NCBI RefSeq assembly: GCF_001700965.1
Contig: NZ_CP016756.1
Coordinates: 4,330,501 to 4,394,500 of the forward strand
Reading direction: 5' to 3'
Source: Stenotrophomonas nitritireducens
GTDB lineage: Bacteria; Pseudomonadota; Gammaproteobacteria; Xanthomonadales; Xanthomonadaceae
DNA length: 64,000 nucleotides
In this document: in pieces, positions 199 through 19,267 of the stretch
Numbering within the stretch: position 1 is the stretch's first letter
How the letters are laid out: each line of letters starts with the position of its first letter
The notes under the pieces: model-generated
What the model was told of the DNA's origin: nothing
Seen by the model: the letters and a program-made list of their open reading frames with translations, nothing else
Databases searched by the model: none
Translations under genes and position numbers: made by a program

Positions 199-2457
199 AT
201 GGAACGCCCGATGTTCGCCGAATCACTTTCAGCAGCAGGCGGCTTGCAACGCCTGCATCAAGATCGCCGCCTGGTCCGTATTGAAACTGCGCTTGCCCCG
301 GAAACATTCCTGGTCAAACGTTTCAACGGCAACGAAGCGGTTTCCGCGCCATTCCTCTATCACATCGAGTTGTTGTCGACCCAGTCACGGCTGGAGTTGA
401 AGCAACTGGTTGGTCAGCCGCTGCGCTTGTTGCTCGGCGATGAGTTCGGTGGGCGCAGCGTGCATGGCTATGTGCGCGAGTTCGCCAGCACCGGGCAACA
501 GGCGCAGTTCAACAGCTATCGGGCCGAAGTGGCGCCCTGGTTTGCCTTCCTCGATTACACCAGCAATTGCCGCATCTTCCAGGACAAGAACGTTCTGGAA
601 ATCATCGAGGAGGTCTTTGCCGGCTACGAGCAGTTGGCGCGCTACCGCTACGATCTCAATACCGGCAAGCTGCAGCCGCTGTCGTACTGCGTGCAGTACA
701 ACGAATCGGATTTCGCCTTCGTCAGCCGCCTGCTGGAAGACGCGGGCCTGTATTACAGCTTCGTCCATGACGACGATGGGCATACGCTGGTCATCAGCGA
801 TGACTCCACGCTCAGCGTGGTGCACGGTGAGCCGGGCGCAGTTGCCTATGTCTCCGATCAGGGCACCTTGGCACGTACCGGCCTGCACCGTTGGGGCGCA
901 CGACGCAGGGTAGGGCCCAGCGCGCAGACATTGCGCAGCTTCGACTTCAAGCAGCCCAAGCAGCAGCTCGATGGCAACCAGGGCAATCAGGTGCCGATGG
1001 GCCTGTTGCCGCCATTGGAACAGTACCGCTACGACGGCGCAGCGCGTTTCGCCAACAGCCGTGTCGGCGAGGCCTTGGCGGCGGTGCGTAATGAGGAAGT
1101 CAGCTGGCCGACCAAGTTGTTTGAATGCGCCGGCAACGCCGGCGAGCTGCAGGCCGGCGCCTGTTTCAGCCTGGAGCGGCACCCGGATTTCATCGGCCGA
1201 GACGAGGTAGACCGCGAGTTCTTCGTGGTGTCGATGCAGCGCGAAGGACACAATAACTTCGCCAGCGATTTCTCCAGCGCCGAGTCGCCCAGCGTGGAGA
1301 TGCAGGCGCAGGTATTACGGCGGCGCATTCCGTTCCGCCCATTGCGGCAGACTCCTTGGCCGCGCATGCCGGGGCCGCAGACGGCTACCGTGGTTGGTCC
1401 GCCAGGTGAAGAACTGCACGCCGATGCCTATGGCCGGGTGAAGGTGCAGTTCCACTGGGACCGCAAGCTGGATCGGCGCGAAAACGCCTCGTGCTGGATC
1501 CGCAGCGCCAGCCCCTGGGCAGGTGCCGACATGGGTGGCGTGTCGCCGCCGCGTATCGGCCAGGAGGTGATCGTCGATTTCCTCGATGGTGACCCGGACC
1601 GGCCGATCATCACCGGCCGCGTCTACAACGAACAGAACATGCCGCCCTTCGGCATGGAAGTCAGCGGCCTGAAATCGAAGACGGTGAAGGGCGCGGGTTG
1701 GAACGAAGTGACCATGCACGACGGCGCCGGCGGCGAGCTGCTGAACATGCGCGCGCAGCGCGACATGGTCACCACTGTGCTCAATGACCAGACTGCGAGC
1801 ATCCTCAACAACAAAACCACAAGTGTGACGGTTGACCACGGCATGACCGTGGGCGGCAACCAGACCATCGGCATCACCGGCAACCGTGGGATCACCGTCA
1901 CTGGCACCGATACCTCTACCGTGACCGGGACGCGCACAACCGATGTCACCGGCGCCGTTGCCGAGACGTATCACACCGGTCAGACCAAGACCATTCTTGC
2001 TGCCGGTTATACCGAAACCATCACCGGCCCGTTCACTACCACGTTGACCGGCAACTACATCAGCCAGCGCACCGGTACGTGGAAGCAGACCATCACCTCG
2101 ACTTCGACGGAGCAGGTGCAGGGGAAGGTGACCGAGGAATATCTTGCCGGGCGCGAGACCACCATCACCGGCCTGGACAAGCGCGGCGTGACTGGCGCGG
2201 TCGAGGATGCCAACAAGGGTTCACGCACGATCGGCGTGGAGGGGGCGTTCGAGCAGGGCGTTACTGAAACCCACTCGCAGTTCTCCACTGGCGAGATGAC
2301 CCTGGCGTCTGCGGCGAAATTGATTGCAGCTGTGGGGGAATCCTCGGCCATCGAAATCACTGCAGGCGAAATCAAGATCAGCGCCGGCGGTTCGGAAGTG
2401 GTGATCAACGCCAGCGGAGTCTCGGTCAACGGCAGCGAGATCAAACTCAACTGCTAA
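199..2457 (+). CDS. vgrG: VgrG (TssI) spike protein, first copy
   Basis: Trimeric tip of the T6SS needle, 752 residues. The first ~370 residues match the gp27-like VgrG core. An OB-fold follows (VQFHWDRK near residue 415, then a stretch ending in GGVSPPRIGQEVIVDFL). Residues ~530-690 are rich in Thr-Gly repeats (ITVTGT, TVTGTRTT), as expected for a long gp5-type beta-helix, and the protein ends in a short DUF2345-like segment. There is no C-terminal toxin domain, so it probably carries the RHS cargo encoded three genes downstream. A start at 211 (MFAESLS) with GGAA seven bases upstream is a plausible alternative. It leads a same-strand module with 2476-9399. Confidence 0.93.
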   Translation: MERPMFAESLSAAGGLQRLHQDRRLVRIETALAPETFLVKRFNGNEAVSAPFLYHIELLSTQSRLELKQLVGQPLRLLLGDEFGGRSVHGYVREFASTGQQAQFNSYRAEVAPWFAFLDYTSNCRIFQDKNVLEIIEEVFAGYEQLARYRYDLNTGKLQPLSYCVQYNESDFAFVSRLLEDAGLYYSFVHDDDGHTLVISDDSTLSVVHGEPGAVAYVSDQGTLARTGLHRWGARRRVGPSAQTLRSFDFKQPKQQLDGNQGNQVPMGLLPPLEQYRYDGAARFANSRVGEALAAVRNEEVSWPTKLFECAGNAGELQAGACFSLERHPDFIGRDEVDREFFVVSMQREGHNNFASDFSSAESPSVEMQAQVLRRRIPFRPLRQTPWPRMPGPQTATVVGPPGEELHADAYGRVKVQFHWDRKLDRRENASCWIRSASPWAGADMGGVSPPRIGQEVIVDFLDGDPDRPIITGRVYNEQNMPPFGMEVSGLKSKTVKGAGWNEVTMHDGAGGELLNMRAQRDMVTTVLNDQTASILNNKTTSVTVDHGMTVGGNQTIGITGNRGITVTGTDTSTVTGTRTTDVTGAVAETYHTGQTKTILAAGYTETITGPFTTTLTGNYISQRTGTWKQTITSTSTEQVQGKVTEEYLAGRETTITGLDKRGVTGAVEDANKGSRTIGVEGAFEQGVTETHSQFSTGEMTLASAAKLIAAVGESSAIEITAGEIKISAGGSEVVINASGVSVNGSEIKLNC

Positions 2458-4241: not shown

Positions 4242-7200
4242 ATGAGCATCGCTGCCAAACATCTTGATCCGCAGTTGGGTATCGATATCCATATGTATGC
4301 GGTGCCGCCCAGCCCGCTGCCCACGCCGCATATCGGGCTGGTGCTGGATCCATTCGACTACATTCCGTTCATCGGTTCGACCATCAAGGTCAACGGTGTG
4401 CATCGCGCCACCGCCGGTACCGGCGGCCTGGATGTGCATATTCCCTTGGGCGTGTGGGCGCCGCCGCTGGCCGCGCCGATGGGCCCACAGTTCGACGGCG
4501 AAGAAATCTTCATGGGCAGCCGCACGGTATCGGCCGATGGCGAGCCGTTCTCGCGCTTGGCCATGCCGGTGCTGGATTGCAACCTGGCCGGCATGATCAA
4601 CCCGTTCCGGGTGAAGAAACCCAAGAAGCCGTTGCGGGCAATGTCGCTGCCGACCGGCCTGAATGTCGCCATTCCGAGCAGCGTGACGGTGGGCGGCCCT
4701 CCGACGATTTCGTGGACGGCGATGGCGTTCCGTGCAGCCTTTGCCGGACTTGGAAAACTGCGCAAGAGCAAGTTCTTCCAAGGCAAGATGGATGCCTTCA
4801 AGGTGTGGCGGCAAGGCAAGTGGGGGCATCTGCCCTCGGGGACACTGAAGTGCAAGATCCTGCGCGCAGAGCCGGTGGATACCCGTGACGGCAGCGTGGT
4901 GGTCAGCCACCAGGACTTCGAAATTCCCGGTCGCCTGCCGTTTGTCTGGCAACGCAGTTACAGCTCCGCTCAAGCCGAGCGCGGCGGCGCCTGTGGCATG
5001 GGCTGGCAGACGCCTGCCGACATCATGCTGGAAGTGTTGGCCGATGGTTCGGTATGGATGTCCGGGCCGGGGCAGGTCGCCTTCTTCCCCGAGCTGCCGC
5101 CGGTTGACGGTGAAGCCGCCGCGATACTGGATTTCGTCGATGGTGCACGCTTGCTGCGCCAGCGCGGGCAATTGCAGGTGCGTTTCAAGGGCGGGTTGGA
5201 GTATGTGTTCGGCAGCGATCTGCCGGCAGGGATTGCCCCGTTGCCGGCACATGGCAGCCTGGCCCTGCAGCGCATCGAAGATGCCAGTGGTAATTACTGG
5301 CGCTTCGAGCGTAACGACGGCCACCTGGTTCGTATTGTTGAAAGCGGTGTCGATGGTCTGCACGGGCGCTTCATCGATGTGGATGCGCGGCACGGCCGTA
5401 TAGAGCGCATGGCCCTGCACGACCCAGCTACCGGGCTTGTGCACCCCTTGGTGAGCTACCGCTACAGCAATGAAGGCGATCTGGCCGCTGCGGTTGACCC
5501 GCTAGGTGCCGCGCGCACGTTTTCCTATGCGCAGCACCGATTGGTGCAGCATACGGACCGGGTTGGCCTGTCGTTCTATTACACCTTTGATGCGCAGGGG
5601 CGGGTAGTGCACTCCTGGGGCGACGGAGGCCTGTACGACTACCACTTCGAGTACGACACGCTGCTGCGCGAGACCCGCGTGACCGATTCGCTGGGCCACC
5701 TGAGCGTGATCAAGTTCGACGAGAATCAGCTACCACTGTGCGAGATTGATCCGCTCGACGGCGTCACTTTCTTCGAGTACGACGACTTCGGCCGCACGGT
5801 GGCGGTAACCGACCCGGAAGGCCTGCGTACCGGGTTTGCGTATGACGCACACGGCAACCTGTGCTGCCTGACGCGGGCAGATGGCAGCAGCTTGCAGATG
5901 GAGTACGACGACCACGACAACATGGTCGCGCTGCGCTCACCGGATGGCGCCACCTGGCAGCAGGCCTACGATGGGCGTGGATTGATGGTCGTGCAGACCG
6001 ACCCATTGGCGGCCACCACGCGTTATGACTATGACGCCAGCGGGCAACTGCTCGCGCAGACCAATGCGCGGCAGGCAGTCACGCAGCTGCGCTACGACCG
6101 TCACGGTCTTGTCGCAGCAGTGATCGACGCGCTCGGGCATGAGAGTCGCTACGAGCAGGATGCACTGGGCAATCTGCTGCGGCAGGTAGATCCGCTGGGC
6201 CAGGTCAGTCGCTATGAATACGACGCCAAGGGCCGCTTGCTGGCAACACTGACGCCCGATGGTACAGGCGTGCGCTGCGAGTACGACGCGGAAGATCAGC
6301 TTGTCCGCTACACCGACGAAGCCGGCGCGCAAACCCGGCTGGAATATGTCGGCATAGGCCAGATCGGACGCCGTCTGCAGGCCGATGGTCATGCGGTGGA
6401 ATACCGCTATGACAGCGAAGAGCAGCTGATCGCCGTCATCAATCAGCGCGGTGAAACCTATCAGCTGGTGCGTGACCCGCTTGGTCGCATCATCGAGGAA
6501 GTCGACTATTGGGGCCAGGCACGACGCTATAGCTATGACGCAGCCGGGCGCTTGACCGCTACCATCGATCCGCTTGGCCAGAAGATAGCCTTCAACACCG
6601 ACAAGATGGGGCGGATTACCCGCAAGACGCTGCCGGATCTGCGCCATCCGGGGCAGCAGCTACAGGAGTATTTCGTCTACGACAAGCTCGGTCAGTTGCT
6701 GGAAATGCGCAATCCCTCACGTACGGTAAAGCGCCGCTACGACCCAGCCGGGCAGCTGTTGGAAGAGCTGCAGGATGGCTTCCGCGTCAGCTATGGCTAC
6801 GACGAGGTGGGCAACCGGGTGTCACGAGACACCTCGGCCGGTAATCATCTGGCCATCGGTTACGACCTGCGTGATCAGGCAGTGTCGATAGCGATCAACG
6901 ATGAGTCGCCCATTCTGATGCAGCGCGATGCCTTGGGGCGGACCACGCAGGAGACCCTGAGCCCGCATCTGCAGCGCAACTTCAGCTATGACAGCCGCAA
7001 CCTGCTGACCTCGCAATCGATCCTGAAGGACGCCGCGCCGCTGTTTGAAACCCGTTACGACTATGACCGCAGCGGCAACCTGACCCGACGCAGTGACAGC
7101 GGGCAGGGCGTGGACGAATACCGCTACGACGCCATTGGTCGGCTACTGCAGCACACCGACCCGAAGGGCAAGATAGAACGCTTCTTCAATGACCCAGCGG

Positions 7201-8732
7201 GCGACCGCCTGCGCACAGAGATCAAGCAGGTGCAGGCACGGAAAGTGATGGGCGGCGACAACGATGAGCTGGTCACCTGGACGCGCGAAGGTACCTATCA
7301 AGGCGTGCACTACGTCTTTGACCGGGCGGGCGACCTGATACGCAAAGGCGCACCGCACGGCGACGCTCCTGACGATCTGACCCTGATCTGGGATGCCAAT
7401 CACCGCTTGGCCGAAAGCCGGCGAAATGGACAAGCCACGCACTATGGCTACGACCCGCTTGGCCGAAGAGTGTTCAAGCGCAACCCGACGCAGACGACAT
7501 GGTTCTTCTGGGACGGCGATGCGTTGTTGGGTGAAGTGCAGCAGGCGAATGACGCGGAGGAGGCCGCGGCGGTATGGGTGGGGAATGTTGCGAACTTGGT
7601 TGAGGTCAAGGCGCGGCAGAAGAAGTTGGCGGCGTTGTATGAGCGCGCTCGGGAGTACTTGTACTACCCAGAGACATTTGTTCCGCTGGCATTGATCACC
7701 GGATCAGGCACTGGGAACCTTCCGTTCCCCGATGCTGGGGGGCAAAAGATAGAGGGGGAGGAGGCCGCCTGTCTTCCACTTCCTTCCGTGAGGAATAGGA
7801 TCGATGAATCTTCCGCATCGGATGTTCATTCAGGTGCCACCACAAACTTAGGTGGTATATCAGGTGGCGGGAGACTTGGGGTGAGTGCTAGCTTGGCCGG
7901 AAAAGAAACAACGCTACAGCATGCCTCTGTCGAGGTGGCCCTATCGGAAGGGCGATTGCGCGAAAGGATGTGCCAAGAGGAGATTGTTCGGAACAATTCT
8001 GCCCCGCAGGGTGCGCGCTTTGGCGAGCAATGTCCTTCGGTTTACTTTGTACAGGCCGACCCGAACGGTGAGATTTTTCGCATGCTGGACCCTTTGGGAG
8101 AGTCACTCGGAGAGCCGCTTGCGGCGCTAAATTTTCTGTATCAGGGCCAGTACCTCGATACTGAGACAGGGTTTGCGTACAATGTACACCGGTATTTTGA
8201 TCCGGGCTTGGCAAGTTATGTGGGCCAGGATCCGATTGGGCTATCGGGCGGATCCAATCTTTATGCATATGGCTTGAATACGTTGGGTTGGGTTGACCCG
8301 CTAGGCCTTTCAAGCACCTATCAGTTGTCGAAGAATTTGACATCTTCTGGTCGGCCCTTGCTGTCCGGTCAGACGGCCCATCATATAGTTCAGCAGAACA
8401 ATCCAAGTAAATATGCGGCCCTTTCTAGGGATCTCTTGATTCGGAATGGGCTGGACGTGGAGATTGCAGAGAACGGTGCAAGGCTTTGGGGGACTGCTGG
8501 GTCTCAAGTTGCACAGAGTGGCCATCCGGGGAGGGCAGCAGCGAGGTCTGCGGGCACTTATCATGCAGGAAAGCATATTCACAGCCCTATAAATGACAAG
8601 ATGATATACCGGATGCTAAGGACGGCCGAGAAGCGCGGTGGTGCTGATGCAATCAAGGCGACACTTAGCGAGCTGGGTCGTAGGCAGGAGAGTGGTAGTT
8701 GGAAGAATTCATTTAAAGCATGTAGGGGTTGA
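4242..8732 (+). CDS. PAAR/RHS polymorphic toxin with C-terminal AHH-type nuclease
   Basis: A 1496-residue T6SS effector. The N-terminal ~180 residues are PAAR-like (Gly/Pro-rich, VNGVHRATAG, SVTVGGPP) and would cap a VgrG spike. The middle is an RHS/YD-repeat shell with many YDxxGxL units from ~residue 230. The core ends with the conserved RYFDPGLASYVGQDPIGL and WVDPLGL near 1340-1356. The variable tip, residues 1357-1496, contains TAHHIV, ENGARLW and YHAGKHIHS, the pattern of AHH-family HNH/endonuclease-VII-fold toxins. An extra ~114-residue low-complexity stretch (nt 7699-8040) interrupts the shell before its last YD unit. The DNA becomes visibly AT-richer from about 7640 to the end, typical of swapped toxin tips. 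DNase or RNase activity is a family-based prediction. Confidence 0.92.
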   Translation: MSIAAKHLDPQLGIDIHMYAVPPSPLPTPHIGLVLDPFDYIPFIGSTIKVNGVHRATAGTGGLDVHIPLGVWAPPLAAPMGPQFDGEEIFMGSRTVSADGEPFSRLAMPVLDCNLAGMINPFRVKKPKKPLRAMSLPTGLNVAIPSSVTVGGPPTISWTAMAFRAAFAGLGKLRKSKFFQGKMDAFKVWRQGKWGHLPSGTLKCKILRAEPVDTRDGSVVVSHQDFEIPGRLPFVWQRSYSSAQAERGGACGMGWQTPADIMLEVLADGSVWMSGPGQVAFFPELPPVDGEAAAILDFVDGARLLRQRGQLQVRFKGGLEYVFGSDLPAGIAPLPAHGSLALQRIEDASGNYWRFERNDGHLVRIVESGVDGLHGRFIDVDARHGRIERMALHDPATGLVHPLVSYRYSNEGDLAAAVDPLGAARTFSYAQHRLVQHTDRVGLSFYYTFDAQGRVVHSWGDGGLYDYHFEYDTLLRETRVTDSLGHLSVIKFDENQLPLCEIDPLDGVTFFEYDDFGRTVAVTDPEGLRTGFAYDAHGNLCCLTRADGSSLQMEYDDHDNMVALRSPDGATWQQAYDGRGLMVVQTDPLAATTRYDYDASGQLLAQTNARQAVTQLRYDRHGLVAAVIDALGHESRYEQDALGNLLRQVDPLGQVSRYEYDAKGRLLATLTPDGTGVRCEYDAEDQLVRYTDEAGAQTRLEYVGIGQIGRRLQADGHAVEYRYDSEEQLIAVINQRGETYQLVRDPLGRIIEEVDYWGQARRYSYDAAGRLTATIDPLGQKIAFNTDKMGRITRKTLPDLRHPGQQLQEYFVYDKLGQLLEMRNPSRTVKRRYDPAGQLLEELQDGFRVSYGYDEVGNRVSRDTSAGNHLAIGYDLRDQAVSIAINDESPILMQRDALGRTTQETLSPHLQRNFSYDSRNLLTSQSILKDAAPLFETRYDYDRSGNLTRRSDSGQGVDEYRYDAIGRLLQHTDPKGKIERFFNDPAGDRLRTEIKQVQARKVMGGDNDELVTWTREGTYQGVHYVFDRAGDLIRKGAPHGDAPDDLTLIWDANHRLAESRRNGQATHYGYDPLGRRVFKRNPTQTTWFFWDGDALLGEVQQANDAEEAAAVWVGNVANLVEVKARQKKLAALYERAREYLYYPETFVPLALITGSGTGNLPFPDAGGQKIEGEEAACLPLPSVRNRIDESSASDVHSGATTNLGGISGGGRLGVSASLAGKETTLQHASVEVALSEGRLRERMCQEEIVRNNSAPQGARFGEQCPSVYFVQADPNGEIFRMLDPLGESLGEPLAALNFLYQGQYLDTETGFAYNVHRYFDPGLASYVGQDPIGLSGGSNLYAYGLNTLGWVDPLGLSSTYQLSKNLTSSGRPLLSGQTAHHIVQQNNPSKYAALSRDLLIRNGLDVEIAENGARLWGTAGSQVAQSGHPGRAAARSAGTYHAGKHIHSPINDKMIYRMLRTAEKRGGADAIKATLSELGRRQESGSWKNSFKACRG

Positions 8733-9647: not shown

Positions 9648-9926
9648 ATGCGCAAGAGCAAATTTACCGAGAGTCAGATCGTTACGACGTTGAAGCAAGT
9701 TGAGGCTGGAAGGCAGGTCAAGGATGTCTGCCGTGAGCTTGGCATTTCCGATGCGACTTACTACGTCTGGAAGTCCAAGTACGACGGCATGGAAGCTTCG
9801 GACGTGCAGCGGTTGCGCGACGTTGAAGCCGAGCACGCAAAGCTCAAGCGGATGTATGCTGACCTGGCGATGGAGAATCATGCGCTGAAGGATCTGATTG
9901 CAAAAAGCTTTAGACCCGGCGCATAA
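9648..9926 (+). CDS. IS3-family transposase OrfA
   Basis: A 92-residue DNA-binding subunit beginning MRKSKFTESQIV. It has a helix-turn-helix (VKDVCRELGISDATYYVWKSKY, residues ~25-46) and a leucine-zipper-like tail (RLRDVEAEHAKLKRMYADL). An AAGGAG lies upstream (9634-9639). In this branch OrfA usually ends ...IAKKL-stop right after an A-AAA-AAG slip site. Here the run has only five A (9902-9906), so the frame continues as IAKSFRPGA before stopping. Confidence 0.9.
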   Translation: MRKSKFTESQIVTTLKQVEAGRQVKDVCRELGISDATYYVWKSKYDGMEASDVQRLRDVEAEHAKLKRMYADLAMENHALKDLIAKSFRPGA

Positions 9927-10755
9927 GCGCCCGCTCTTGGCCTGGCTGCAGGACCGCCACGGCTGGAGCGAACGCCGGGCCTGTGCAGCGATTGGGATGT
10001 CACGGTCGACGGCACGCTACCGCCATCGACCGGATCGGGACGAAGATGTGATCGCGTTATTGGCCGAGCTCTCTGAGCGTTTTCCGGAGCGCGGCTTCGG
10101 CAAGCTGTTTCTACTGATTCGTCGCCGCGGTTTGGTTTGGACTCACAAGCGTGTCCGGCGTGTGTACTGCCTGATGAAGCTCAATCAGCGTCGGCGAGGA
10201 AAGAAGCGTCTTCCAAACCGGCACCCGATGCCGTTGGTGGCCGGCGAGCAGATCAACGGCAGTTGGTCGATCGACTTCATGTCCGACGCGCTCTGGGATG
10301 GACGACGCTTCCGGACATTCAACGTAATCGGCGATTTCAGCCGCGAGGCTTTGGCCATCGAAGTTGATCTGAATTTGCCGGCTACGCGAGTCATCCGCAC
10401 TTTGGAGCGAATTGCGGCGTGGTGCGGCTATCCCGCAAAGCTCCGCCTAGACAATGGCCCCGAATTCATCGCCTTGGCGTTGGCGGAATGGGCCGAGCGC
10501 AAGAACATCGCGCTGGATTTCATCGAGCCAGGACGGCCGATGCAGAACGGCTTTATCGAACGCTTTAATGGCAGCTTCCGACGTGGCGTGCTGGATATGC
10601 ACGTCTTCCGCAATCTCGGAGAAGTACGCGAACAGGCAGAGCAGTGGTTGGCCGATTACAACACCGACATACCTCACGACAGCCTCGGCGGGCTGACGCC
10701 AGCCGAATTCCGCCAGTACCACGAACCGGAAACCTCTAATTTAGCCTGGCATTGA
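9898..10755 (+). CDS. IS3-family transposase OrfB (DDE integrase domain)
   Basis: The catalytic half, ~285 residues, with an rve integrase core: first Asp in SWSIDFMSDAL, second in LRLDNGPEF, and the Glu in NGFIERFNG, spaced as in IS3 transposases. It ends in the usual YNTDIPHDSLGGLTPAEF segment. The listed TTG start is only where the frame opens. In this family OrfB is normally made as an OrfA-OrfB fusion by -1 frameshifting, but here OrfB is in the +1 phase relative to OrfA because the A-run is one base short. The copy may therefore be impaired in fusion synthesis. Confidence 0.88.
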   Translation: MQKALDPAHKRPLLAWLQDRHGWSERRACAAIGMSRSTARYRHRPDRDEDVIALLAELSERFPERGFGKLFLLIRRRGLVWTHKRVRRVYCLMKLNQRRRGKKRLPNRHPMPLVAGEQINGSWSIDFMSDALWDGRRFRTFNVIGDFSREALAIEVDLNLPATRVIRTLERIAAWCGYPAKLRLDNGPEFIALALAEWAERKNIALDFIEPGRPMQNGFIERFNGSFRRGVLDMHVFRNLGEVREQAEQWLADYNTDIPHDSLGGLTPAEFRQYHEPETSNLAWH

Positions 10756-11056: not shown

Positions 11057-11701
11057 TTATCGCTTATCTGCCAGCTGCAGTTCCAACGTGTAGATCACAC
11101 TGTCTTCAATGCGGCCATCGACCGCGAAGGCGATGGATAGTTGGTCCGGTGCAAGGTCAGTCCGGTGTGTGAAACAGGTGGCGACACCTTTGGTGCAGCT
11201 GAAATCCCAGGCATCACCGCCGGCTGCGCGCAGGTCGCGTACCGTTGTACTGTTGGTGATCGGCAACCCCTGCAAGGACAGGGACTGATCGTAGGTGCGC
11301 AGGGGCTCCAGTTCGGTGCCGGGCGCAGCTACTTCAAAGCCAGCCGCTTCGTTGTCCATATGGTTGAGGACAATGGTGACGATGCTGGCGCTGGGGTTCT
11401 TGGCGTTGTCGGGGTATACACGAATGCCGAGTTTGTCCCATACCAGAACCGTGAGGCTGGGATTGGGTTGGGTGCTTCGATAGTCGGCGCCAAGCACTGT
11501 TACCCATTCGTTCATTGGCGCGCCAAGATTCAGTACCTTGCCTTGGTAGATCAGGCCCGTAGGTGTTGTCTCGAGGAATGGCTTCTCTTTGACGGCCACA
11601 TCGGCGGCGGCAGCCGACGCCGACTCCGCCCGCGATGAGCTGACATCGCAGCCGATCAGCATCATCCCGAACAGCGTTGCCGCCAATAAGCACTTGTTCA
11701 C
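11057..11701 (-). CDS. Lipoprotein, probable immunity to the VgrG-zincin-HetC effector
   Basis: A 214-residue protein with a lipoprotein signal peptide (MNKCLLAATLFGMMLIGC, cysteine at 18) and a mature domain containing NEWVTVLGADY, VWDKLGIRVYPD and repeated beta-type segments. The overall pattern resembles DUF7738-type proteins, but I am not certain of the family. The start is GTG at 11701, overlapping the stop of the upstream effector gene (GTGA), so the two are translationally coupled. Asp follows the lipidated Cys (CDV). In enterobacteria that retains lipoproteins on the outer face of the inner membrane, a sensible place to block a toxin acting on the membrane or in the periplasm. Confidence 0.78.
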   Translation of the reverse strand: MNKCLLAATLFGMMLIGCDVSSSRAESASAAAADVAVKEKPFLETTPTGLIYQGKVLNLGAPMNEWVTVLGADYRSTQPNPSLTVLVWDKLGIRVYPDNAKNPSASIVTIVLNHMDNEAAGFEVAAPGTELEPLRTYDQSLSLQGLPITNSTTVRDLRAAGGDAWDFSCTKGVATCFTHRTDLAPDQLSIAFAVDGRIEDSVIYTLELQLADKR

Positions 11702-14700
11702 TTCTTGCCGCTCCCTTTGACCTGGTTCTTCTCGCCGAAGAGATCTTCATAGAACTTGGTGATGTAATCCCAGCTGTCGGTGCCATAGCGGCCGACGCGG
11801 CGAATGCCCTCGAGTGCGTCCTTGCCATGCTCTTCGTGCAAATGTTCGATCTCGGTCGCCGACGCGGCCCTGCGGATGTTGGCGGCATGGTCCTTGGCCC
11901 AGGCCGATACATGCGGGCATTGCCAGCTGCTGTCGTAGGGATGGACCAGGTAGTCCTGGGCGATCTTCACCGGATCGCATTGCCCGTTTCCGTTCCAGCG
12001 GGCAAGCATCGCCTTGCCCACCTCGGTCACCGCTTGCTGTGCAAGTTTGGCCGCGAGCGTATGCAGCGGATGGACGTCGTGATCCTTTGCCAGCTGCGAA
12101 TGGCTGGGGTCGGTTGAGCCGCTCTTGTTCGGGTCGGAATCGAACATGGTCTGGGCATCGTCGACGCTGTTGCCGATCAGCAAAAGCAATTGCTGATAGA
12201 CAAGGTTGTAACTGTTCAGCACCAGACGCATCGGGGCCGAAGCGATCCAGCCCGCGCGTTCCAGATATTCGTGGCCGGGTATGCTGAGCATGCGGTCGCG
12301 CAGCTTCAGGAAGTTCTGGAAGCCGGTGTAATAGCGTTGATCGCTCTGCTCGGAAAGCAGGACGAGCATGATCTTTTCGCTGTCCGAGCGCTCACCTGGC
12401 TTGCTGGCCTTGAATTCCCAGCTTTCCACGCTGAAAAGCTTGTGGGCAATGGGCTCGGCCAAGCTGGCAATCACATCGGTAGAGCCGAACATGCCGGTCA
12501 CTACCGGGTACTTGTGCTTGCAATCGGCCGCCGATGTCCACAGAAGAACATTGTTGTGCCCGATCTTGCGCAGGCTCAGCTCGCAGAAGTTGGAGTGGGC
12601 GAAATAGTCTTCCAGCACATGCAGCGCGGAGCCGAAGTGACGCATGCCGTCGGCAGTACGTCCCAGCGAAATCGCCTGCTTCAGCTCCGATGCCATGAAG
12701 GCACTGGAACTGGCGATGTAGCGCTTCATCGATGTCGCTTTGTCCACGCCAAGCAACGGGCTGTTGGCAGTGACCCAAGGTTCGAAATCCTTGTCGACCG
12801 TCTTGGGGTCTGCGGGGTCCGGCTTCAGGTTTTTAGGATTGTCGATGTGTTCGCTGGGCCGATAGACACCCAAACGAGCGGGTGTCACTTCATAGTGGGC
12901 TTTATCGCGATAGCGCAGCTCATGGAACTCGCCGCCGGCGAGAATGTCGACAATCTTGGTCAGTGCCTCGCGCGAGATGTACTTGCCCAGATCCTTGGGC
13001 ATGTTCGGCGGGCGGACAATCTTTGGATCAAGCAGCTGGGAATAGTCACGCAGCCAGTTGCCGAAGTAGATGGCGGCAAGATCGCTGCGGCTGAAACCCG
13101 CCCTGCCAAGAACGGCTTCGATCGAGCGGTGCCCGAATGACTGGCCAGGGTTCTTGGCGTGGTTCTGCCCATCGCCGGCGCTGAATCCTTCGTAGCGCCC
13201 GTCCTGTGTCTTGTTGCTCTCCTGGGCAACCGGGCCTTGTTGGCGCAGTGCCGCCTGCACTTCGGCGTAATTGACTTTCAGCGGCCCGCTGAACTCCGGC
13301 GAGGTGTAGTTGGCGTAGGTTGTCTTGTGCGTGCCTTCCAGATCGAAGAAGGCAAAGCGATAAGCCATGCCCGTGCCTTCTTCCTGCGCGCTGTCGGTAG
13401 CAATGGTCGGCTTGCCGTCGGCGCCTTTTTCAGCGAGATCGTTGCGCAGGACATTATCGACGTGGTGGCCGAATTCATGTAGAAGCACGGCAAGCAGCTC
13501 ACGCGAGGCTTCAATCGAGGTTGAGGCCTGGTCGGCGGCTGAAGCGTGCACGCGGATCAGGCGCTTGGCATTGTCGTAGTCGGCGGGGTAGGGCCCGCCG
13601 CTGAGTACTTCATGCTTGGGCGGCGGGAAGCTACCGTTCTTCAGCGCTTCCTGCAGCTTCATATAGGTTCGTGCTGGCACGTCGAAGCCGAACGTCGGCG
13701 CCATCATCATCACGAATTCGATCGGTGTCGATTTTTCGGCGGCGCTGCGCAACTGGTCGTAGGCGAACGTGCTTTCTATCTTGCGCGCAGGATCGGGCTT
13801 GATCTTGAACGCGGGCAGCGGCGGCAGCCTGGGCGAAGAACTGCTGCCAGCCATGAACGGGTGCTCGCCGGCCTTGACCTTGAACTCGCCCGGGCAGCTG
13901 AAAGTGATGTCGCCGCCTTCCAGGGTGATCGCACTGCTGCCTGCCTGCAGCACCACCTTGCTCTTTGCGAGCACATCAATGCGCGCGTCGGTGGCGGTGA
14001 CGGTCACGGCTTGGTCGGCCAGCAGTTCCAGTTCACCGTCGTTGGCCTGCAGGCTGACCGGACCATTGGCGGCAATCAGCCGCACCGGGCCACCCTGCGC
14101 AAACAGTGAAACCTGACCGCCGGAAACCGCAGCAATGGTTTCGCCGCTGCTGGCATGCAGGTCCTGTTGTACGGTCAGTTGCAGGTTCTGCCCGGCGAAC
14201 GCAATCGCGCTTGCAGGTGTGGTCCAGGCAATGTGGTTTGGTGCTTCAGCGAGCAATAGCGGCTTGGCAAAGCGCTCAACCGGCTGATCTCCAGGCGTGC
14301 GGCCATCGCTGGGCTTGAACTGGGATTGGCCGTTGACCACCGCCTGGAAGCGGCCGTCCGCGGCCGGGTCGATCTGCTGCCGCAATTGACCGGTCTGCTG
14401 CCATGCCTTGAGGCCGGGCACCTGCTGTTGCTGCAGGGTCTGTTGCATCTGCTCCAGGCTGCGCTCGGCGCCCTTGAGCTGTGCAACCACCTCGGCATTA
14501 TCCATCACCGTGGAGGTGGCACGTTCCTGTGTACTGGCTGACAACAGCAGACCTTCGGCCGCGTGCACATTGCTCCAGCCCTGGGTGGCCAGTTCGAAGC
14601 CTTCGCCGCGTAGCGCGCCGCGTGCGGTGTCCTGATGCTGTATGAGATAGCCAAGCTCAAGCCGGCTATCAGCCAATGAACTGTGCAGGCGCGTGCGCAG

Positions 14701-16287
14701 CTGGCCAGGCGTGTCGTCGATTACCCATTGCTGGGTGCCACTGCCGTCGTGGGCCTGTGTATGCAGGCCGCTGAGCACACCCGGGTGCTTGGCGTCTTCA
14801 TCGATGCCGCCACCAAACGGCGGCGCAACATTGCCGTTATAGAGCTGGCCGGTGATGCGCGGTTGATCGATATCGCCGTGCAGGAACTCCACCAGCACTT
14901 CGCTGCCAATGCGCGGCAGGAAGGCGGTTCCCCAGTTGGGGCCTGCCACCCATTCGGCAACGGATACCCAGCTGCCGCTGGTATGGTCACCCGGTGCGTG
15001 GCCGGCCTGCGCGCTGCCGGTTTCACTCAGGCCGCCCGAGTTGGGCGCGCTGCCGCGCTGCCAGGCGAACTGGACACGGACCTGATGTTCCCTGTTCGGG
15101 CTGAGCGCGGCATCGGCCACGCCAACCACGCGCGCCGTCTGCGGGCCGTGCAGGGAAGGGCGGTCATGTGGCAGGGCGCGGACGGGAACGCTGCCATCGG
15201 TGGCCAGAAACTGGTTGCGGTAGCTGCCGCGTTCCAGCTCGCTGTTGCCAAGCAGTTCGGCGATGCCACTGTCGAGATTGTTGACCGCCGCGTGGGCGAC
15301 TACCAGGATCTGGAACTGGCCGCCTTCGTGTTGTGGGTGCTGGCTGAGCGTGAACCGTGTGCCTGCGGCCATGCGGCGTTCACTGCTGCTTCCGCCATGC
15401 AGCCGCTGCGCAACCTGCAGGGCGTCTAGTCGCGCCTGTGCCTCGTCCTGCGCCCAGCGGTTGTCATTGAAGCGGCCCGCGCGCGGCTGCACATACACTT
15501 CCAGTGGAACGTCACTGCCTTCCGCGCTGGCTTGTGCGGCGATGGCGTTGAGTTTTTCACTGTGCCAGCTGGCAACCGTGCTGCTGTTGGGGACAAGCTG
15601 ACGCTGTTCGCCGAAGTGTGTGATGCCGTCACTGGATTCACTGGCGGCAATGCGATGGAAGCGAATGCTGCCGATGTCGGGCAGCTCGGCTTCGGGTTCA
15701 AAAACCACCAGGGTGTGCGCGCCATCGCCGTCCTGCGCCTGTTCGATGCGCCAGGCAAGGCCGCTTTCGGCCAGCAGGCGGGTCACGAACTCCCAGTCGG
15801 TCTCGCGGTATTGGGTGGTGATCTCGCGTTGCGGCAGCGCCGCTTCAACATCGAAGCGGTAGTCGGCCTGCGGGTAGTCGTCAAAGATCTGCGTGCAGAT
15901 GGCGCGGACATCCAGCGCCTGGAAGATCACCGCGTTGCGGCGCAGCCTCAGCAGTGCGGTCCAGGGTTCAAGTGCAAGCTGGTAACGCGCCAGGCCGCCA
16001 TCGCTGCCAAGCTGAGCAACATCGGTGCACAGCCCGTGCCATTGCCGCTGTGAGCCGTCAGCGAGCTGCAGTTGCAGCGTCAGTGGCTGTTCCAGCCAGT
16101 TGTCGGTCTGTAGATAGGCGTCGGTGCAGAGGCAGTCGATCTGCAGCCGCATGTCGCCGCACAGGGCCTCCTGGCCCTCGAAGCGCTCAACCACCAGCCC
16201 CTCATGTGGGGCCTGCAGTTTGATCAGGCGGTCGCGATGTGAAAGCGCCGCGAGTGCGACAGACAACGAGGAGCTCGGGACGTCCAT
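11698..16287 (-). CDS. vgrG: Evolved VgrG with C-terminal zincin and Het-C-like domains
   Basis: A 1529-residue fusion effector. I start it at ATG 16287 (MDVPSSSLSVALAALSHRD), ten bases after tssL; the frame is open upstream to 16434, but that would run inside tssL. Residues 1-~600 are the VgrG core (gp27/gp5), and ~780-880 are DUF2345-like with short beta repeats. The C-terminal half is an extra toxin. An HExxH zinc-protease motif lies at about 937-941 (LLHEFGHHVD). A Het-C/NGG1-type pattern follows: GNWLRDYSQ near 1077 and ALHVLEDYFAHSNFCEL near 1221-1237. Het-C folds are related to zinc-dependent phospholipase C/S1-P1 enzymes, so membrane or phosphoester attack is plausible. Which domain is active is unknown. 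Confidence 0.88.
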   Translation of the reverse strand: MDVPSSSLSVALAALSHRDRLIKLQAPHEGLVVERFEGQEALCGDMRLQIDCLCTDAYLQTDNWLEQPLTLQLQLADGSQRQWHGLCTDVAQLGSDGGLARYQLALEPWTALLRLRRNAVIFQALDVRAICTQIFDDYPQADYRFDVEAALPQREITTQYRETDWEFVTRLLAESGLAWRIEQAQDGDGAHTLVVFEPEAELPDIGSIRFHRIAASESSDGITHFGEQRQLVPNSSTVASWHSEKLNAIAAQASAEGSDVPLEVYVQPRAGRFNDNRWAQDEAQARLDALQVAQRLHGGSSSERRMAAGTRFTLSQHPQHEGGQFQILVVAHAAVNNLDSGIAELLGNSELERGSYRNQFLATDGSVPVRALPHDRPSLHGPQTARVVGVADAALSPNREHQVRVQFAWQRGSAPNSGGLSETGSAQAGHAPGDHTSGSWVSVAEWVAGPNWGTAFLPRIGSEVLVEFLHGDIDQPRITGQLYNGNVAPPFGGGIDEDAKHPGVLSGLHTQAHDGSGTQQWVIDDTPGQLRTRLHSSLADSRLELGYLIQHQDTARGALRGEGFELATQGWSNVHAAEGLLLSASTQERATSTVMDNAEVVAQLKGAERSLEQMQQTLQQQQVPGLKAWQQTGQLRQQIDPAADGRFQAVVNGQSQFKPSDGRTPGDQPVERFAKPLLLAEAPNHIAWTTPASAIAFAGQNLQLTVQQDLHASSGETIAAVSGGQVSLFAQGGPVRLIAANGPVSLQANDGELELLADQAVTVTATDARIDVLAKSKVVLQAGSSAITLEGGDITFSCPGEFKVKAGEHPFMAGSSSSPRLPPLPAFKIKPDPARKIESTFAYDQLRSAAEKSTPIEFVMMMAPTFGFDVPARTYMKLQEALKNGSFPPPKHEVLSGGPYPADYDNAKRLIRVHASAADQASTSIEASRELLAVLLHEFGHHVDNVLRNDLAEKGADGKPTIATDSAQEEGTGMAYRFAFFDLEGTHKTTYANYTSPEFSGPLKVNYAEVQAALRQQGPVAQESNKTQDGRYEGFSAGDGQNHAKNPGQSFGHRSIEAVLGRAGFSRSDLAAIYFGNWLRDYSQLLDPKIVRPPNMPKDLGKYISREALTKIVDILAGGEFHELRYRDKAHYEVTPARLGVYRPSEHIDNPKNLKPDPADPKTVDKDFEPWVTANSPLLGVDKATSMKRYIASSSAFMASELKQAISLGRTADGMRHFGSALHVLEDYFAHSNFCELSLRKIGHNNVLLWTSAADCKHKYPVVTGMFGSTDVIASLAEPIAHKLFSVESWEFKASKPGERSDSEKIMLVLLSEQSDQRYYTGFQNFLKLRDRMLSIPGHEYLERAGWIASAPMRLVLNSYNLVYQQLLLLIGNSVDDAQTMFDSDPNKSGSTDPSHSQLAKDHDVHPLHTLAAKLAQQAVTEVGKAMLARWNGNGQCDPVKIAQDYLVHPYDSSWQCPHVSAWAKDHAANIRRAASATEIEHLHEEHGKDALEGIRRVGRYGTDSWDYITKFYEDLFGEKNQVKGSGKK

Positions 16288-16297: not shown

Positions 16298-17089
16298 TCA
16301 TGGCAAGGTGATCGTGATGTGCGCAGTGCGTTCGGGCATCTGCACGACGTTGTTGTAGGCGGCCAGCTGCTGGCGGGTATCGTGGCCCATATAGGTGCGC
16401 AGGCCGATGAAGGCCAGCACGCCGAAGCAACCAACCACCGCAGCCGGCAACCACAACGGAATCACCCGGCGCAGCTGGTTGCGGATGTTGTCTGGCGGCA
16501 GCGCGTGGGGCGCGAAGCCATGTCGCTTGCCTTTCAGGTAGACGATTTCATCGCCCAGGCGCGCGGTCAGGTAGCCCAGCTTCTCGGTGCCTTCGAGGCG
16601 GTACTTGCCCTCGAATCCCATCAACAGGCAGTAGTGGTAAACCTCCAGCGACGGCAGCCGCGGTGCACCCTGACGGCGCAGCTCTTCGAGCTTGTCGAAG
16701 AAATGTTCGCCGGCCAGGTGCTCGCCGAACATGCGCAGCTGCAGCGGGTTGCGTTCCCACACTTCATGCAAGGCCGACGGCTGCGAGAGGATGGCCTCAT
16801 CAACGGCTGCGCAGAAAGCGTACTTGGAGGCGTAGACATCTTCAGCGGCAATGCCAAGGCGCATCGCGTTGCGCTCGACGCTGTCGAGGAACTTCTGCAC
16901 TGTCTGCACGAAACCTTCGGCATCGTTGGGCAGTTGGCCGCGCTTGAGCAGCAACAGCAGGTAGAAGCCGTCTGACATCAGATCCTGCAGGCTTTGCGGC
17001 GCTGCGGAAATCTGTGCGTTGTTGGCCATCGCTGCATTGCCGGTCAGTGACGGCATCGGGCCCGGGGTCGGAGGCAGGTGTGAGTTCAT
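16298..17089 (-). CDS. tssL: TssL (DotU/IcmH-like) inner-membrane protein
   Basis: 263 residues, part of the TssJLM trans-envelope complex. The N-terminal cytoplasmic helical domain has the DotU signatures YASKYAFCAAVDEAIL and GEHFFDKLEEL. A single C-terminal membrane helix follows (LWLPAAVVGCFGVLAFIGL, about 213-231), with a short periplasmic tail. There is no OmpA/peptidoglycan-binding domain; that function is probably supplied separately by the protein at 50239-51030. The start overlaps the tssK stop by one base (TGATG), indicating coupling. Confidence 0.95.
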   Translation of the reverse strand: MNSHLPPTPGPMPSLTGNAAMANNAQISAAPQSLQDLMSDGFYLLLLLKRGQLPNDAEGFVQTVQKFLDSVERNAMRLGIAAEDVYASKYAFCAAVDEAILSQPSALHEVWERNPLQLRMFGEHLAGEHFFDKLEELRRQGAPRLPSLEVYHYCLLMGFEGKYRLEGTEKLGYLTARLGDEIVYLKGKRHGFAPHALPPDNIRNQLRRVIPLWLPAAVVGCFGVLAFIGLRTYMGHDTRQQLAAYNNVVQMPERTAHITITLP

Positions 17090-18441
17090 CAGGTGGTCAC
17101 CGCAACGAGTTCGAGCTTGAGGTCGGCAATGCCGGAGGGGACATAGATCATCAGCGACTGCGATTTGAGCATGCGTTCATACAAAGCACCGCGTGCATCC
17201 AACTCGAAATAGTGGCTGCCGGGACGTACCGGAATGGCGGCCGGCACCTGTGCCGCGTGGGTGAGCTTCACGCCTGGCAGCGCGGAAAGCACGCATTTCT
17301 CCACGTCGTCGGGTGCGCCGATCTTGAAACGGATAGGCACCGTCTGGATCAGCTCCTGCGCAGGCATGGAGGCAGAAACGGACAGGTAGAACGAAGCTTC
17401 GCCATCGATGCGCTGCGAATCCAGCCGGCCCAGATGGTAGGACGGCTTGATCTCGTTCAAGGCGATCTTGAAGTAGCGCGTGGAGATGACGGTTTCCAGC
17501 AGCGCACGCACGATTTCCAGCAGCTTGCGGAACGAAGCTTCCGGTTGATCGTGGCGATACACCGGCAGATCGTTGAGCTGGTACGTGTTGGAGAAGGTGA
17601 GCAGGGCGCCGGCCATGCGCAGCAATTCCTGATGCAGGCGCTCGGGATGCAGCTGCGGGTGATGCAGCAGATGGGCGAGGGCGCTGAAGGAGGAATTGAT
17701 GGTGTGCAGCAACCAGAACGACGCGATGTCGCCTGAGCGGAATTCGATGATGTTCTGCGAGGTCTGCCGATGCAGTCCGTACAGCGCGTCTACCTTGGCC
17801 TGCAGCGCGTCCAGTACGGCGCGCAACTCGCGATGCAGGAACGGCGATGCCTGCAACTGCGCGCAGGGCGGGATGAATTCATCGTCCAGTTCAAAGCCAC
17901 CGCTGGATGTTCTGCGCACGCGTGCAACCGGCACGGAGGCGTAGGCATCCTTGGGTTGGTCATCGGTAAGCAGCTTCACCGCTTTGCTGAGATATGCCAA
18001 TTCAGCTTCGGCAGCATCGGTGAACAAATCGTCCGAAACCCGGTTGGCTTGGCGATAACGCGCAAGCACGCTGCCTTCTGCGTCGGTGCAATTGCGACCG
18101 TCGTCACGCAATAGCGGTAATGCAAGATACACAACGGTTGCTTGAACCCCCGGCGGAAGGTCCTGCAGCGATACGGCATCGGGAAGACTGTCATGGACCG
18201 GGGCGTCATAGCTTTCACCGTCCGGAAAAACCGCAGACAAGTCCAGCGGGCGCAGCGTGCCACCGGCAAGCGCGTGCGGATCGAAACGCACGCGCCGCGC
18301 ACCCCATGCGTAAGGATGCAGGGTCTGCGACAGATCGTGCAGGCGCGCCTCGTGATAGGCGTCTTGGCGCTGGAAGTGCTGCGGGCGCAGGAACAAGCCT
18401 TCACCCCATAAAACCTTCGACATCCTGCTTACGTAAGCCAC
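17089..18441 (-). CDS. tssK: TssK baseplate-membrane adaptor
   Basis: 450 residues, the trimeric adaptor linking baseplate to membrane complex. The family start SKVLWGEGLFLRPQHFQRQD is plain, as is the conserved body (YQLNDLPVY, HLGRLDSQRIDGEASFYLSV). GTG at 18441 has AAGGA seven bases upstream and is my choice. ATG at 18423 (MSKVLWGEG), a start seen in many homologues, is the alternative. tssJ lies upstream, separated by about 200 bases containing a nested inverted repeat. Confidence 0.96.
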   Translation of the reverse strand: MAYVSRMSKVLWGEGLFLRPQHFQRQDAYHEARLHDLSQTLHPYAWGARRVRFDPHALAGGTLRPLDLSAVFPDGESYDAPVHDSLPDAVSLQDLPPGVQATVVYLALPLLRDDGRNCTDAEGSVLARYRQANRVSDDLFTDAAEAELAYLSKAVKLLTDDQPKDAYASVPVARVRRTSSGGFELDDEFIPPCAQLQASPFLHRELRAVLDALQAKVDALYGLHRQTSQNIIEFRSGDIASFWLLHTINSSFSALAHLLHHPQLHPERLHQELLRMAGALLTFSNTYQLNDLPVYRHDQPEASFRKLLEIVRALLETVISTRYFKIALNEIKPSYHLGRLDSQRIDGEASFYLSVSASMPAQELIQTVPIRFKIGAPDDVEKCVLSALPGVKLTHAAQVPAAIPVRPGSHYFELDARGALYERMLKSQSLMIYVPSGIADLKLELVAVTT

Positions 18442-18518
18442 ATTTCAATCCTTGGAAATTCCGTTGGCGCGTTGCATCGAGCGTCACGCTCAAGTCACAT
18501 AATCACAGCGCAGGCGTT

Positions 18519-18561
18519 GTTGCAGCCGATGTGAAAACTCCATTCACATCCTGGTTGCAAC
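18519..18561. promoter_or_regulatory. Nested inverted repeat between tssJ and tssK
   Basis: GTTGCA (18519-18524) and GATGTGAA (18528-18535) are mirrored by TTCACATC (18543-18550) and TGCAAC (18556-18561). It lies ~80 bases upstream of tssK in an otherwise empty 202-bp gap. It could be a regulator site or an RNA hairpin that separates tssJ from tssK expression. No T-run follows in the direction of transcription. Confidence 0.4.
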
Positions 18562-18643
18562 CGCCTCATGCGGTTTCAACGCGAAAGATACTAGCGCATG
18601 CTTGGCTGGCAATGTTGAAGTGCTCGCGAAAACCACGCGGGGT

Positions 18644-19267
18644 TCAACGCGCACCCGCGCAGCGCACCGACGCCAGACTGCCCGAGTCGCCGGAGATGCG
18701 GCTGCTCAGCGCGGGACTGTCGGTGGTCAATGCACAGGCGTGCACGCCAAGGGTGATGCCGTCGTTGGGAAGATTCTTGGTGCGTGCATCAAAGGCCATG
18801 CGCCAGCGGCCTTCGGCGGGCGAACGGAACAACGCCACCACGCCGATGACCGCGGTGCCATCGCTTAGTTGTTCGGACAATTCCTGGCGTACCCCCGGTG
18901 TCAGTACCACTTCGTTGACCGACAGCAGGTCCGCGCCCAACGCCGCTTGTTCACCGGCTTGGTCAAGGAAGGCATTGAAGGGAGCCTGTTCAAAACGCTG
19001 GCCGCCGCGCAGGTGATAGATCTTCAATACCGCTGCGCTCGCGCGTTTGTCGTTACCGGCATTGAGATTCGTCCCGGCGTAGATCTTGAGCGGAATTACC
19101 GGAGGTTTCTCAGGTTTTGCTTCACGCAGACCAACCGCTTGCAGTGTACTGTCCATGGCCTTGCCCAGCTTGCTGCCGGAAGCGCAGCCGCCTAATGCGA
19201 AGGTAGTAAGCAGGGAGAAAGTTGTGACTGAAACAACACGCAGAAGTTTGCTCATGTACGCATTCAT
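18644..19267 (-). CDS. tssJ: TssJ outer-membrane lipoprotein
   Basis: 207 residues with a lipoprotein signal (LLTTFALGGCASG), followed by the TssJ beta-sandwich pattern (PLKIYAGTNLNAG, AAVLKIYHLRGGQRFEQAPF, LTPGVRQELSEQL, GVVALFRSPAEGRWRMAFD). TssJ anchors TssM to the outer membrane. ATG at 19255 is an alternative start that shortens the signal peptide by four residues. It is first gene of the leftward group tssJ-tssK-tssL-vgrG-immunity and is divergent from the TPR lipoprotein gene. Confidence 0.93.
   Translation of the reverse strand: MNAYMSKLLRVVSVTTFSLLTTFALGGCASGSKLGKAMDSTLQAVGLREAKPEKPPVIPLKIYAGTNLNAGNDKRASAAVLKIYHLRGGQRFEQAPFNAFLDQAGEQAALGADLLSVNEVVLTPGVRQELSEQLSDGTAVIGVVALFRSPAEGRWRMAFDARTKNLPNDGITLGVHACALTTDSPALSSRISGDSGSLASVRCAGAR

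What the first reader, a model, noticed from the sequence alone, without database searches (positions are those of the whole stretch)
11057..16287. VgrG fused to zincin plus Het-C-like domains, coupled to an inner-membrane lipoprotein
A single protein carries the VgrG spike, an HEFGHH zinc-protease motif (~937) and a Het-C/phospholipase-C-like pattern (GNWLRDYSQ, ALHVLEDYFAHSNFCEL). The next gene starts inside its stop (GTGA) and encodes a lipoprotein with Asp at +2, which in enterobacteria means inner-membrane retention. This suggests a spike-borne toxin hitting periplasm or membrane lipids, with immunity stationed at the inner-membrane outer face.
Basis: partly seen in the sequence, partly recalled or inferred. 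Interest (0 to 1): 0.72.

Follow-up and report, generated by a model that had tools for sequence, protein, structure and literature searches.

The report
Bacterial spike toxin with matched antidote
A Stenotrophomonas bacterium carries a toxin built onto the tip of its molecular harpoon, with a protease-like segment and a lipase-like or nuclease-like segment, next to an envelope-targeted protein that is very probably its antidote; the general kind is known, while this protease and this antidote family were not mentioned in the papers that could be searched.

Summary
Window 11698-16287 (-) encodes a 1529-aa VgrG with an HEFGHH domain (about 832-1017) and a true Het-C domain (PF07217, E=1e-47), directly after tssJ-tssK-tssL. 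A DUF7738 lipoprotein overlaps its stop codon. (1) DUF7738 behaves as cognate immunity: in the genus the same 7 of 91 genomes carry module and DUF7738, one with 8 copies (2 partial). (2) Immunity tracks Het-C, not the zincin. Between two S. maltophilia strains, VgrG and zincin differ at 6-7% of bases, Het-C at 27%, and the immunities share 32% of residues; the breakpoint falls at the zincin/Het-C border. The zincin stays with the spike, so it looks more like a processing or accessory domain than the neutralised toxin. (3) Asp+2 is not conserved (6 of 12 first-in-line immunities; two lack a lipobox), so inner-membrane anchoring is not the rule; export is. Best reading: a periplasm-acting Het-C (phospholipase-C-like) polymorphic tail with a swappable immunity. 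An "evolved VgrG with Het-C, unknown function" is published for S. maltophilia; the zincin, the DUF7738 immunity and two-level cassette swapping are what this adds. No structure prediction could be run.

The parts
11698..16287 (-). Evolved vgrG: VgrG spike + zincin-like domain + Het-C domain, 1529 aa
13828..16287 (-). VgrG core with DUF2345 (residues 1-820): Phage_GPD 39-337, Phage_base_V 434-483, T6SS_Vgr 512-616, DUF2345 667-812
13237..13794 (-). Zincin-like domain (residues 832-1017), no curated Pfam match and no relevant PDB match
13462..13479 (-). HEFGHH motif (residues 937-942); HExxH invariant in 9 of 9 aligned sequences
13378..13380 (-). Glu970, invariant, candidate third zinc ligand (inference)
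13168..13191 (-). ExFxAGxG stretch (1033-1040) inside an otherwise variable linker, start of the Het-C match; proposed release site region (inference)
11701..13191 (-). Het-C domain (residues 1033-1529)
13099..13152 (-). Position of the recombination breakpoint seen between S. maltophilia SJTL3 and LMG 978 (codons 1045-1062 of LMG 978), projected on the window
12580..12621 (-). HVLEDYFAHSNFCE (1223-1236): HxxxDxxxH and NxxE of the Tox-HET-C signature, its signature residues invariant
11057..11701 (-). DUF7738 lipoprotein, proposed immunity protein, GTG start overlapping the vgrG stop
11645..11659 (-). Lipobox LIGC with Asp at +2 (residues 15-19)
16298..19267 (-). tssL (16298-17089), tssK (17089-18441), tssJ (18644-19267): same-strand T6SS genes directly upstream of vgrG

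Best explanation
It is a type VI secretion effector built as a polymorphic toxin. The VgrG spike carries a zincin-like domain and then a Het-C domain into the periplasm of a neighbouring bacterium; Het-C is the swappable toxic tail, most likely a metal-dependent phospholipase-C-type hydrolase acting on membrane lipids. The overlapping DUF7738 protein is exported to the periplasm (here as a lipoprotein) and binds Het-C to protect sister cells. The zincin is a constant domain between spike and toxin, more likely a release or processing protease (or a second, non-neutralised activity) than the toxin against which DUF7738 protects. Shown here: architecture, co-occurrence, co-variation of immunity with Het-C in close strains, cassette displacement. 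Inferred: toxicity, lipid substrate, binding, proteolytic release.
For: VgrG core, Het-C and DUF7738 by HMM; location in the T6SS cluster. Genus: module in 7 of 91 genomes and DUF7738 in the same 7 of 91 (1/C(91,7)=1.2e-10 without correction for kinship). Immunity arrays: 8 DUF7738 matches (2 partial) behind one module in L012, 4 (1 partial) in L010; remnants of Het-C tails sit before extra copies in L009, L010, L012 and L013 and before a degraded DUF7738 in G707. An orphan immunity of LMG 978 is 85% identical to the cognate one of SJTL3. SJTL3 vs LMG 978: base differences VgrG 5.7%, zincin 6.8%, Het-C 27.0% (Fisher p=1.3e-26), best breakpoint codon 1062 (support 1045-1062), immunity 32% identical. 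RAC2 vs LMG 978: zincin 2 of 558 bases differ, Het-C 1046-1150 15.9%, immunity 65-68% identical. The six Tox-HET-C signature elements listed in PMC3482391 are invariant in 9 of 9 sequences (the assignment of residues to the signature is mine, by order). Zincin plus Het-C also sit on another VgrG type in an Aliivibrio MAG. Exported-looking N-termini on the immunities, by eye.
Against: No structure or biochemistry. A profile of 24 S1-P1 nucleases did not align with the Het-C alignment (hhalign E=0.43), so the phospholipase/nuclease kinship rests on PMC3482391 (itself borderline, 50% probability) and motifs. The zincin could be toxic too. Between the window and L008-L010 zincin and Het-C are about equally diverged, so the immunity argument rests on the close pairs. 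In a Tenacibaculum relative of the zincin the first His of HExxH is missing, so proteolysis is not universal in that domain family. In G828 Het-C lies next to DUF2345 with no zincin, but in another frame and near a contig end. The remnant tail in L010 is 98% like its own Het-C, so it shows duplication or displacement, not replacement by the SJTL3 type.
Confidence: 0.6

Rival explanations
1. The zincin is itself the main antibacterial toxin, as in P. aeruginosa VgrG2b (Tpe-Tpi family), and DUF7738 neutralises it; Het-C is a second or ancillary activity. This is closest to the first reader's idea.
For: VgrG2b is an evolved VgrG with a C-terminal HExxH metallopeptidase, toxic in the periplasm and not in the cytoplasm, with an exported immunity PA0261 whose relatives are periplasmic, lipoprotein or inner-membrane (PMC6899460 passages). 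HExxH is invariant in 9 of 9 here.
Against: Immunity diverges to 32% and 65-68% identity while the paired zincins are 97.8% and 100% identical at protein level. The zincin profile found no VgrG2b-type structure in the PDB sequence search. The zincin is internal, not C-terminal.
Confidence: 0.15
2. Het-C is aimed at fungi or other eukaryotes and DUF7738 is an accessory rather than an immunity protein.
For: Authors of PMC6838775 suggested an antifungal role for Het-C VgrGs in Acinetobacter; a Pseudomonas syringae Het-C is reported to be needed for infection of fungal hyphae (PMC3482391 passage).
Against: Tight co-occurrence, immunity arrays, effector-tail remnants and fast divergence of DUF7738 are the pattern of bacterial immunity genes.
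Confidence: 0.1
3. Het-C acts as a metal-dependent nuclease (S1-P1 type) that must reach nucleic acid, and the exported partner blocks it before uptake.
For: PMC3482391 leaves nuclease or phospholipase open.
Against: The immunity looks exported in the relatives whose N-termini were read, which fits an envelope target better; no S1-P1 profile match.
Confidence: 0.15

Closest known systems
Evolved VgrG4 with a Het-C domain in S. maltophilia S25 and S377 (PMC13055248, passages seen)
   Same: Same genus, an i4-clade T6SS cluster, VgrG with a C-terminal Het-C domain; probably the same effector
   Different: The passages call it uncharacterised, of unknown function; no zincin and no DUF7738 immunity are mentioned in the passages seen, and those genomes were not compared here
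Tox-HET-C of polymorphic toxin systems (Zhang et al. 2012, PMC3482391, passages seen)
   Same: Signature residues; coupling to a preceding metallopeptidase (PVC-metallopeptidase) in PVC-type toxins
   Different: The table row gives no immunity for Tox-HET-C; here DUF7738 is proposed. The protease here lacks the HExxHxxQ signature (it has HEFGHHVD)
P. aeruginosa VgrG2b / Tpe-Tpi metallopeptidase effectors (PMC6899460, passages seen)
   Same: Evolved VgrG, HExxH domain, exported immunity encoded just downstream, diverse anchoring of immunity
   Different: VgrG2b carries the metallopeptidase at its C-terminus; here it is internal, no sequence match was found, and immunity tracks Het-C
Acinetobacter bereziniae evolved VgrGs with LysM and Het-C (PMC6838775, passages seen)
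   Same: VgrG with C-terminal Het-C
   Different: LysM domain reported; zincin and DUF7738 not mentioned in the passages seen and not tested here

Membership tests
Evolved VgrG (T6SS spike effector) | Complete VgrG core followed by a non-structural C-terminal domain | tested here: met
Evolved VgrG (T6SS spike effector) | T6SS-dependent secretion | not testable with these tools
   needs experiment; genes lie next to tssJKL
Tox-HET-C (PF07217) | HMM match above the curated cut-off | tested here: met
   163 bits vs cut-off 21
Tox-HET-C (PF07217) | H, [DE], HxD, HxxxDxxxH, Nxx[DE], [ST]G signature (from PMC3482391) | tested here: met
   H1053, D1081, H1147xD1149, H1223xxxD1227xxxH1231, N1233xxE1236, T1264G1265 invariant in 9 of 9; matching of single residues to the signature is mine, their figure was not available
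Zinc phospholipase C / S1-P1 nuclease superfamily | Profile similarity to S1-P1 nucleases | tested here: inconclusive
   hhalign E=0.43 with 24 S1-P1 sequences; both profiles shallow
Zinc phospholipase C / S1-P1 nuclease superfamily | Helical fold with trinuclear metal site | not tested
   27 prediction requests (26 module, 1 immunity) answered busy, last
Zincin metallopeptidase | HExxH plus a third ligand, conserved | tested here: met
   HExxH and Glu970 invariant in 9 of 9; ligand role inferred
Zincin metallopeptidase | Family profile or structural match | tested here: inconclusive
   of 7 members scanned, best weak hits, each in one member, Peptidase_M43 E=0.0083 and DUF4344 E=0.037; no relevant PDB match
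PVC-metallopeptidase (releasing peptidase) | HExxHxxQ...E signature (PMC3482391) | tested here: not met
   HEFGHHVD: Asp in place of Gln
VgrG2b C-terminal / Tpe family | Sequence relation to a solved VgrG2b metallopeptidase domain | tested here: inconclusive
   no such hit with the zincin profile at E<=5; that a VgrG2b entry is in the library is assumed, not checked
T6SS effector-immunity pair | Adjacent, co-occurring, co-diversifying partner genes | tested here: met
T6SS effector-immunity pair | Neutralisation of the toxin by the partner | not testable with these tools
   needs experiment
Inner-membrane lipoprotein by the +2 Asp rule | Asp+2 conserved in the immunity family | tested here: not met
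   D in 6 of 12 first-in-line genes; Q 2, V 1, A 1, no lipobox by eye 2

The most novel reading that the evidence does not exclude
The spike toxin is a self-activating zymogen. In S1 nuclease, of the fold that Het-C is proposed to share, the main chain of the mature N-terminus is a zinc ligand (PMC5201275 passages), so a Het-C domain buried inside a VgrG fusion would lack a ligand until it is cut free. The adjacent zincin would cut near the ExFxAGxG stretch (1033-1040) after delivery, releasing Het-C from the spike and completing its metal site in one step; DUF7738 meets only the released form. This would explain why a constant protease sits between the spike and a variable toxin.
Probability: 0.18. 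Interest if true: 0.75.

Novelty: new variant of a known kind. Interest (0 to 1): 0.5.

Why it matters
Het-C domains occur in fungal incompatibility and in bacterial toxins, and the passages seen of the Stenotrophomonas and polymorphic-toxin papers leave their activity open. A matched immunity family (DUF7738) found in natural allelic series, with orphan copies, gives a direct way to test what a bacterial Het-C toxin hits and how immunity recognises it. The zincin/Het-C border as a natural recombination point separates the roles of the two domains without engineering.

Tried and rejected
Tried without result: structure prediction of the module (A3, 26 requests) and the immunity (A4, 1 request): all 27 were answered 'machine busy' and none ran, so there was also no fold search. 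Plasmid search with the Het-C part and with the immunity, phage search with the module, IMG/VR pattern scan for the HVLED...AHSN motif and PADLOC: no match. PDB sequence searches with P0002, A6, A3 and A4 gave nothing relevant; with the whole VgrG only its core matched convincingly. Search of 210 class genomes for PF07217: 2 of 210, own plus one below the cut-off, so stand-alone Het-C proteins could not be compared. Paper search for P1 nuclease, Trp1, phospholipase C and zinc together: 0 papers.

Considered and rejected: Asp+2 as evidence for inner-membrane immunity (not conserved); the zincin as the neutralised toxin (constant in close strains while immunity changes); G828 as a functional zincin-less Het-C VgrG (frames differ, near a contig end); G080 and G383 as DUF7738 without Het-C (both close to contig ends, upstream gene not held).
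Full report
What is there. On the minus strand, directly behind tssJ, tssK and tssL, lies a 1529-aa vgrG (11698-16287). Pfam finds Phage_GPD 39-337, Phage_base_V 434-483, T6SS_Vgr 512-616, DUF2345 667-812 and Het-C 1033-1286 with a further C-terminal stretch. Between DUF2345 and Het-C lies an HEFGHH domain with no curated Pfam match and no relevant PDB match. The next gene starts on the stop codon (GTGA) and encodes a 214-aa lipoprotein with one DUF7738 domain. The nearest named relative is Stenotrophomonas terrae (98% over the module).

Is it real. The genome collection scan returned 10 loci; 8 contain the whole module (zincin plus Het-C), and 2 (L015, L016) match only the end of the VgrG platform and continue with other proteins. 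HExxH, Glu970 and the six Tox-HET-C signature elements are invariant in 9 of 9 aligned sequences (window and those 8), which span Stenotrophomonas, Lysobacter, Pseudoduganella and an Aliivibrio MAG (signature list from a PMC3482391 passage; assignment of the residues is mine).

Distribution. Family: module 2 of 297 genomes (single-protein query), DUF7738 3 of 297. Genus: module 7 of 91, DUF7738 7 of 91, the same seven. Class: module or fragment 2 of 369, DUF7738 3 of 369. Family of the Pseudoduganella locus: 3 of 215, that genome included and one of the three with Het-C only. Over, 11 distinct genomes carry DUF7738: 9 have the module or a Het-C tail; 2 (G080, G383) break off close to a contig end, so nothing can be said. 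In these searches DUF7738 was never shown without Het-C.

Immunity pattern. Copies accumulate downstream: L012 has 8 matches (2 partial), L010 4 (1 partial), L013 3, L007 and L009 2 each, L008 2 (1 partial), the window 1. Short Het-C tail remnants stand before extra copies in L009, L010, L012 and L013. In G707 a Het-C tail remnant and a degraded DUF7738 lie downstream of a 522-aa frame that looks VgrG-like by eye at its start and holds a different metallopeptidase motif (no Pfam match above cut-off). In Lysobacter spongiicola a complete VgrG with another tail is followed by a detached zincin-Het-C cassette that begins with a second copy of the DUF2345 end. An orphan immunity of LMG 978 is 85% identical to SJTL3's cognate one. 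This is the pattern of polymorphic toxins with displaced cassettes.

Which domain does immunity match? SJTL3 (L009) and LMG 978 (L010): base differences 5.7% in VgrG 1-820, 6.8% in the zincin, 8.0% in the linker, 27.0% in Het-C (zincin vs Het-C Fisher p=1.3e-26, sites treated as independent); the best single breakpoint is codon 1062 with support 1045-1062; immunity proteins are 32% identical. RAC2 (L008) and LMG 978: zincin 2 of 558 bases differ, Het-C 1046-1150 15.9%, Het-C 1151-1500 3.0%, immunity 65% to 68% identical. If DUF7738 neutralised the zincin, nearly identical zincins would be paired with very different immunities. The simpler reading is that DUF7738 meets Het-C, possibly through residues 1046-1150 (inference). 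For more distant pairs (window against L008-L010) zincin and Het-C are about equally diverged, so the argument rests on the close pairs.

Membrane claim. Among the immunity genes first behind the module or Het-C domain (12 loci: window, L007-L014, L067, L068, L069) the residue after the lipobox Cys is Asp in 6, Gln in 2 (L008 and L012, 99% identical to each other), Val in 1 (L013, where signal peptidase I cleavage is also possible), Ala in 1 (L014), and 2 have no lipobox by eye (L067, L068). Export appears kept; anchoring is not. PMC6899460 reports the same freedom for the PA0261 family (passages).

The zincin. It stays with the spike when Het-C is swapped, is present on another VgrG type without DUF2345 in an Aliivibrio MAG, and a relative sits between a PAAR-like DUF4280 domain and a tail with phospholipase/nuclease-like His motifs (my reading by eye; no Pfam match) in a Tenacibaculum plasmid protein (hhalign E=9.6e-13; tblastn E=2e-3 with the window zincin and 4e-10 with the Aliivibrio one). 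There the first His of HExxH is Glu. The Tenacibaculum domain in turn has weak matches in three cyanobacterial plasmid proteins; the two that I read (E=1e-4, 4e-4) show the same change, the third (E=8e-3) was not read. This suggests a recurrent partner of exported domains rather than a toxin in its own right, but it also means that HExxH is not universal in the domain family. The window domain does not have the PVC-metallopeptidase signature.

Mechanism. Best supported: injection into the periplasm; Het-C damages the envelope, probably phospholipids; DUF7738 protects kin. The lipid target is inferred from exported immunity and from the phospholipase C/S1-P1 proposal of PMC3482391; my own profile test against S1-P1 nucleases was negative. 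The bolder reading, self-release creating the N-terminal metal ligand, is in the section on the most novel reading; it rests on S1 nuclease (PMC5201275 passages), on the invariant ExFxAGxG stretch and on position, and is untested.

What is in print. PMC13055248 (passages) lists an evolved VgrG4 with an uncharacterised Het-C domain in two S. maltophilia isolates; PMC6838775 (passages) lists LysM plus Het-C VgrGs in Acinetobacter. Searches of the held library: DUF7738 0 papers; Het-C with T6SS and effector 5; Het-C, type VI secretion and VgrG 3; HetC domain with type VI secretion 1; PF07217 6, seen as a listing only. Subscription papers are mostly not covered. The name HET-C is used for two different fungal proteins; the Podospora one is a glycolipid-transfer protein (PMC10197012 passage) and is not this domain.

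Noticed in passing
L071:6362-8365 (Tenacibaculum finnmarkense plasmid CP116296.1): PAAR-like DUF4280 protein with a zincin-like domain whose HExxH reads EETGH, followed by a tail with phospholipase/nuclease-like His motifs by eye; the next gene did not match the DUF7738 alignment.
   Followed up: partly
L072:3524 onward and L073:3731 onward (Gloeothece and Nostoc plasmids): Large CARDB and Calx-beta proteins start with a weak match to the Tenacibaculum domain, with EExGH in place of HExxH.
   Followed up: partly
L052:174-2379 (G707): A 522-aa frame, VgrG-like at its start by eye, with a different metallopeptidase motif (weak Astacin match E=0.0098, below cut-off) and a following lipoprotein-like frame, upstream of Het-C/DUF7738 remnants.
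   Followed up: partly
L016:8335-9954 and L015:658-2082: In two other Stenotrophomonas records the VgrG platform (L016; only its end is held in L015) is followed by unrelated proteins of 539 and 474 aa with no Pfam match, probable alternative effectors.
   Followed up: no
window 9648-10755 (+): Transposase pair of IS3 type (HTH_Tnp_1; rve and rve_3) between the Rhs-like gene and the immunity gene (the type is my reading).
   Followed up: no
window 199-2457, 4242-8732, 29607-32333, 33294-36794 (+): Two further VgrGs and a VasX_N protein of 1166 aa, and an Rhs-like protein of 1496 aa by eye, in the same window.
   Followed up: no
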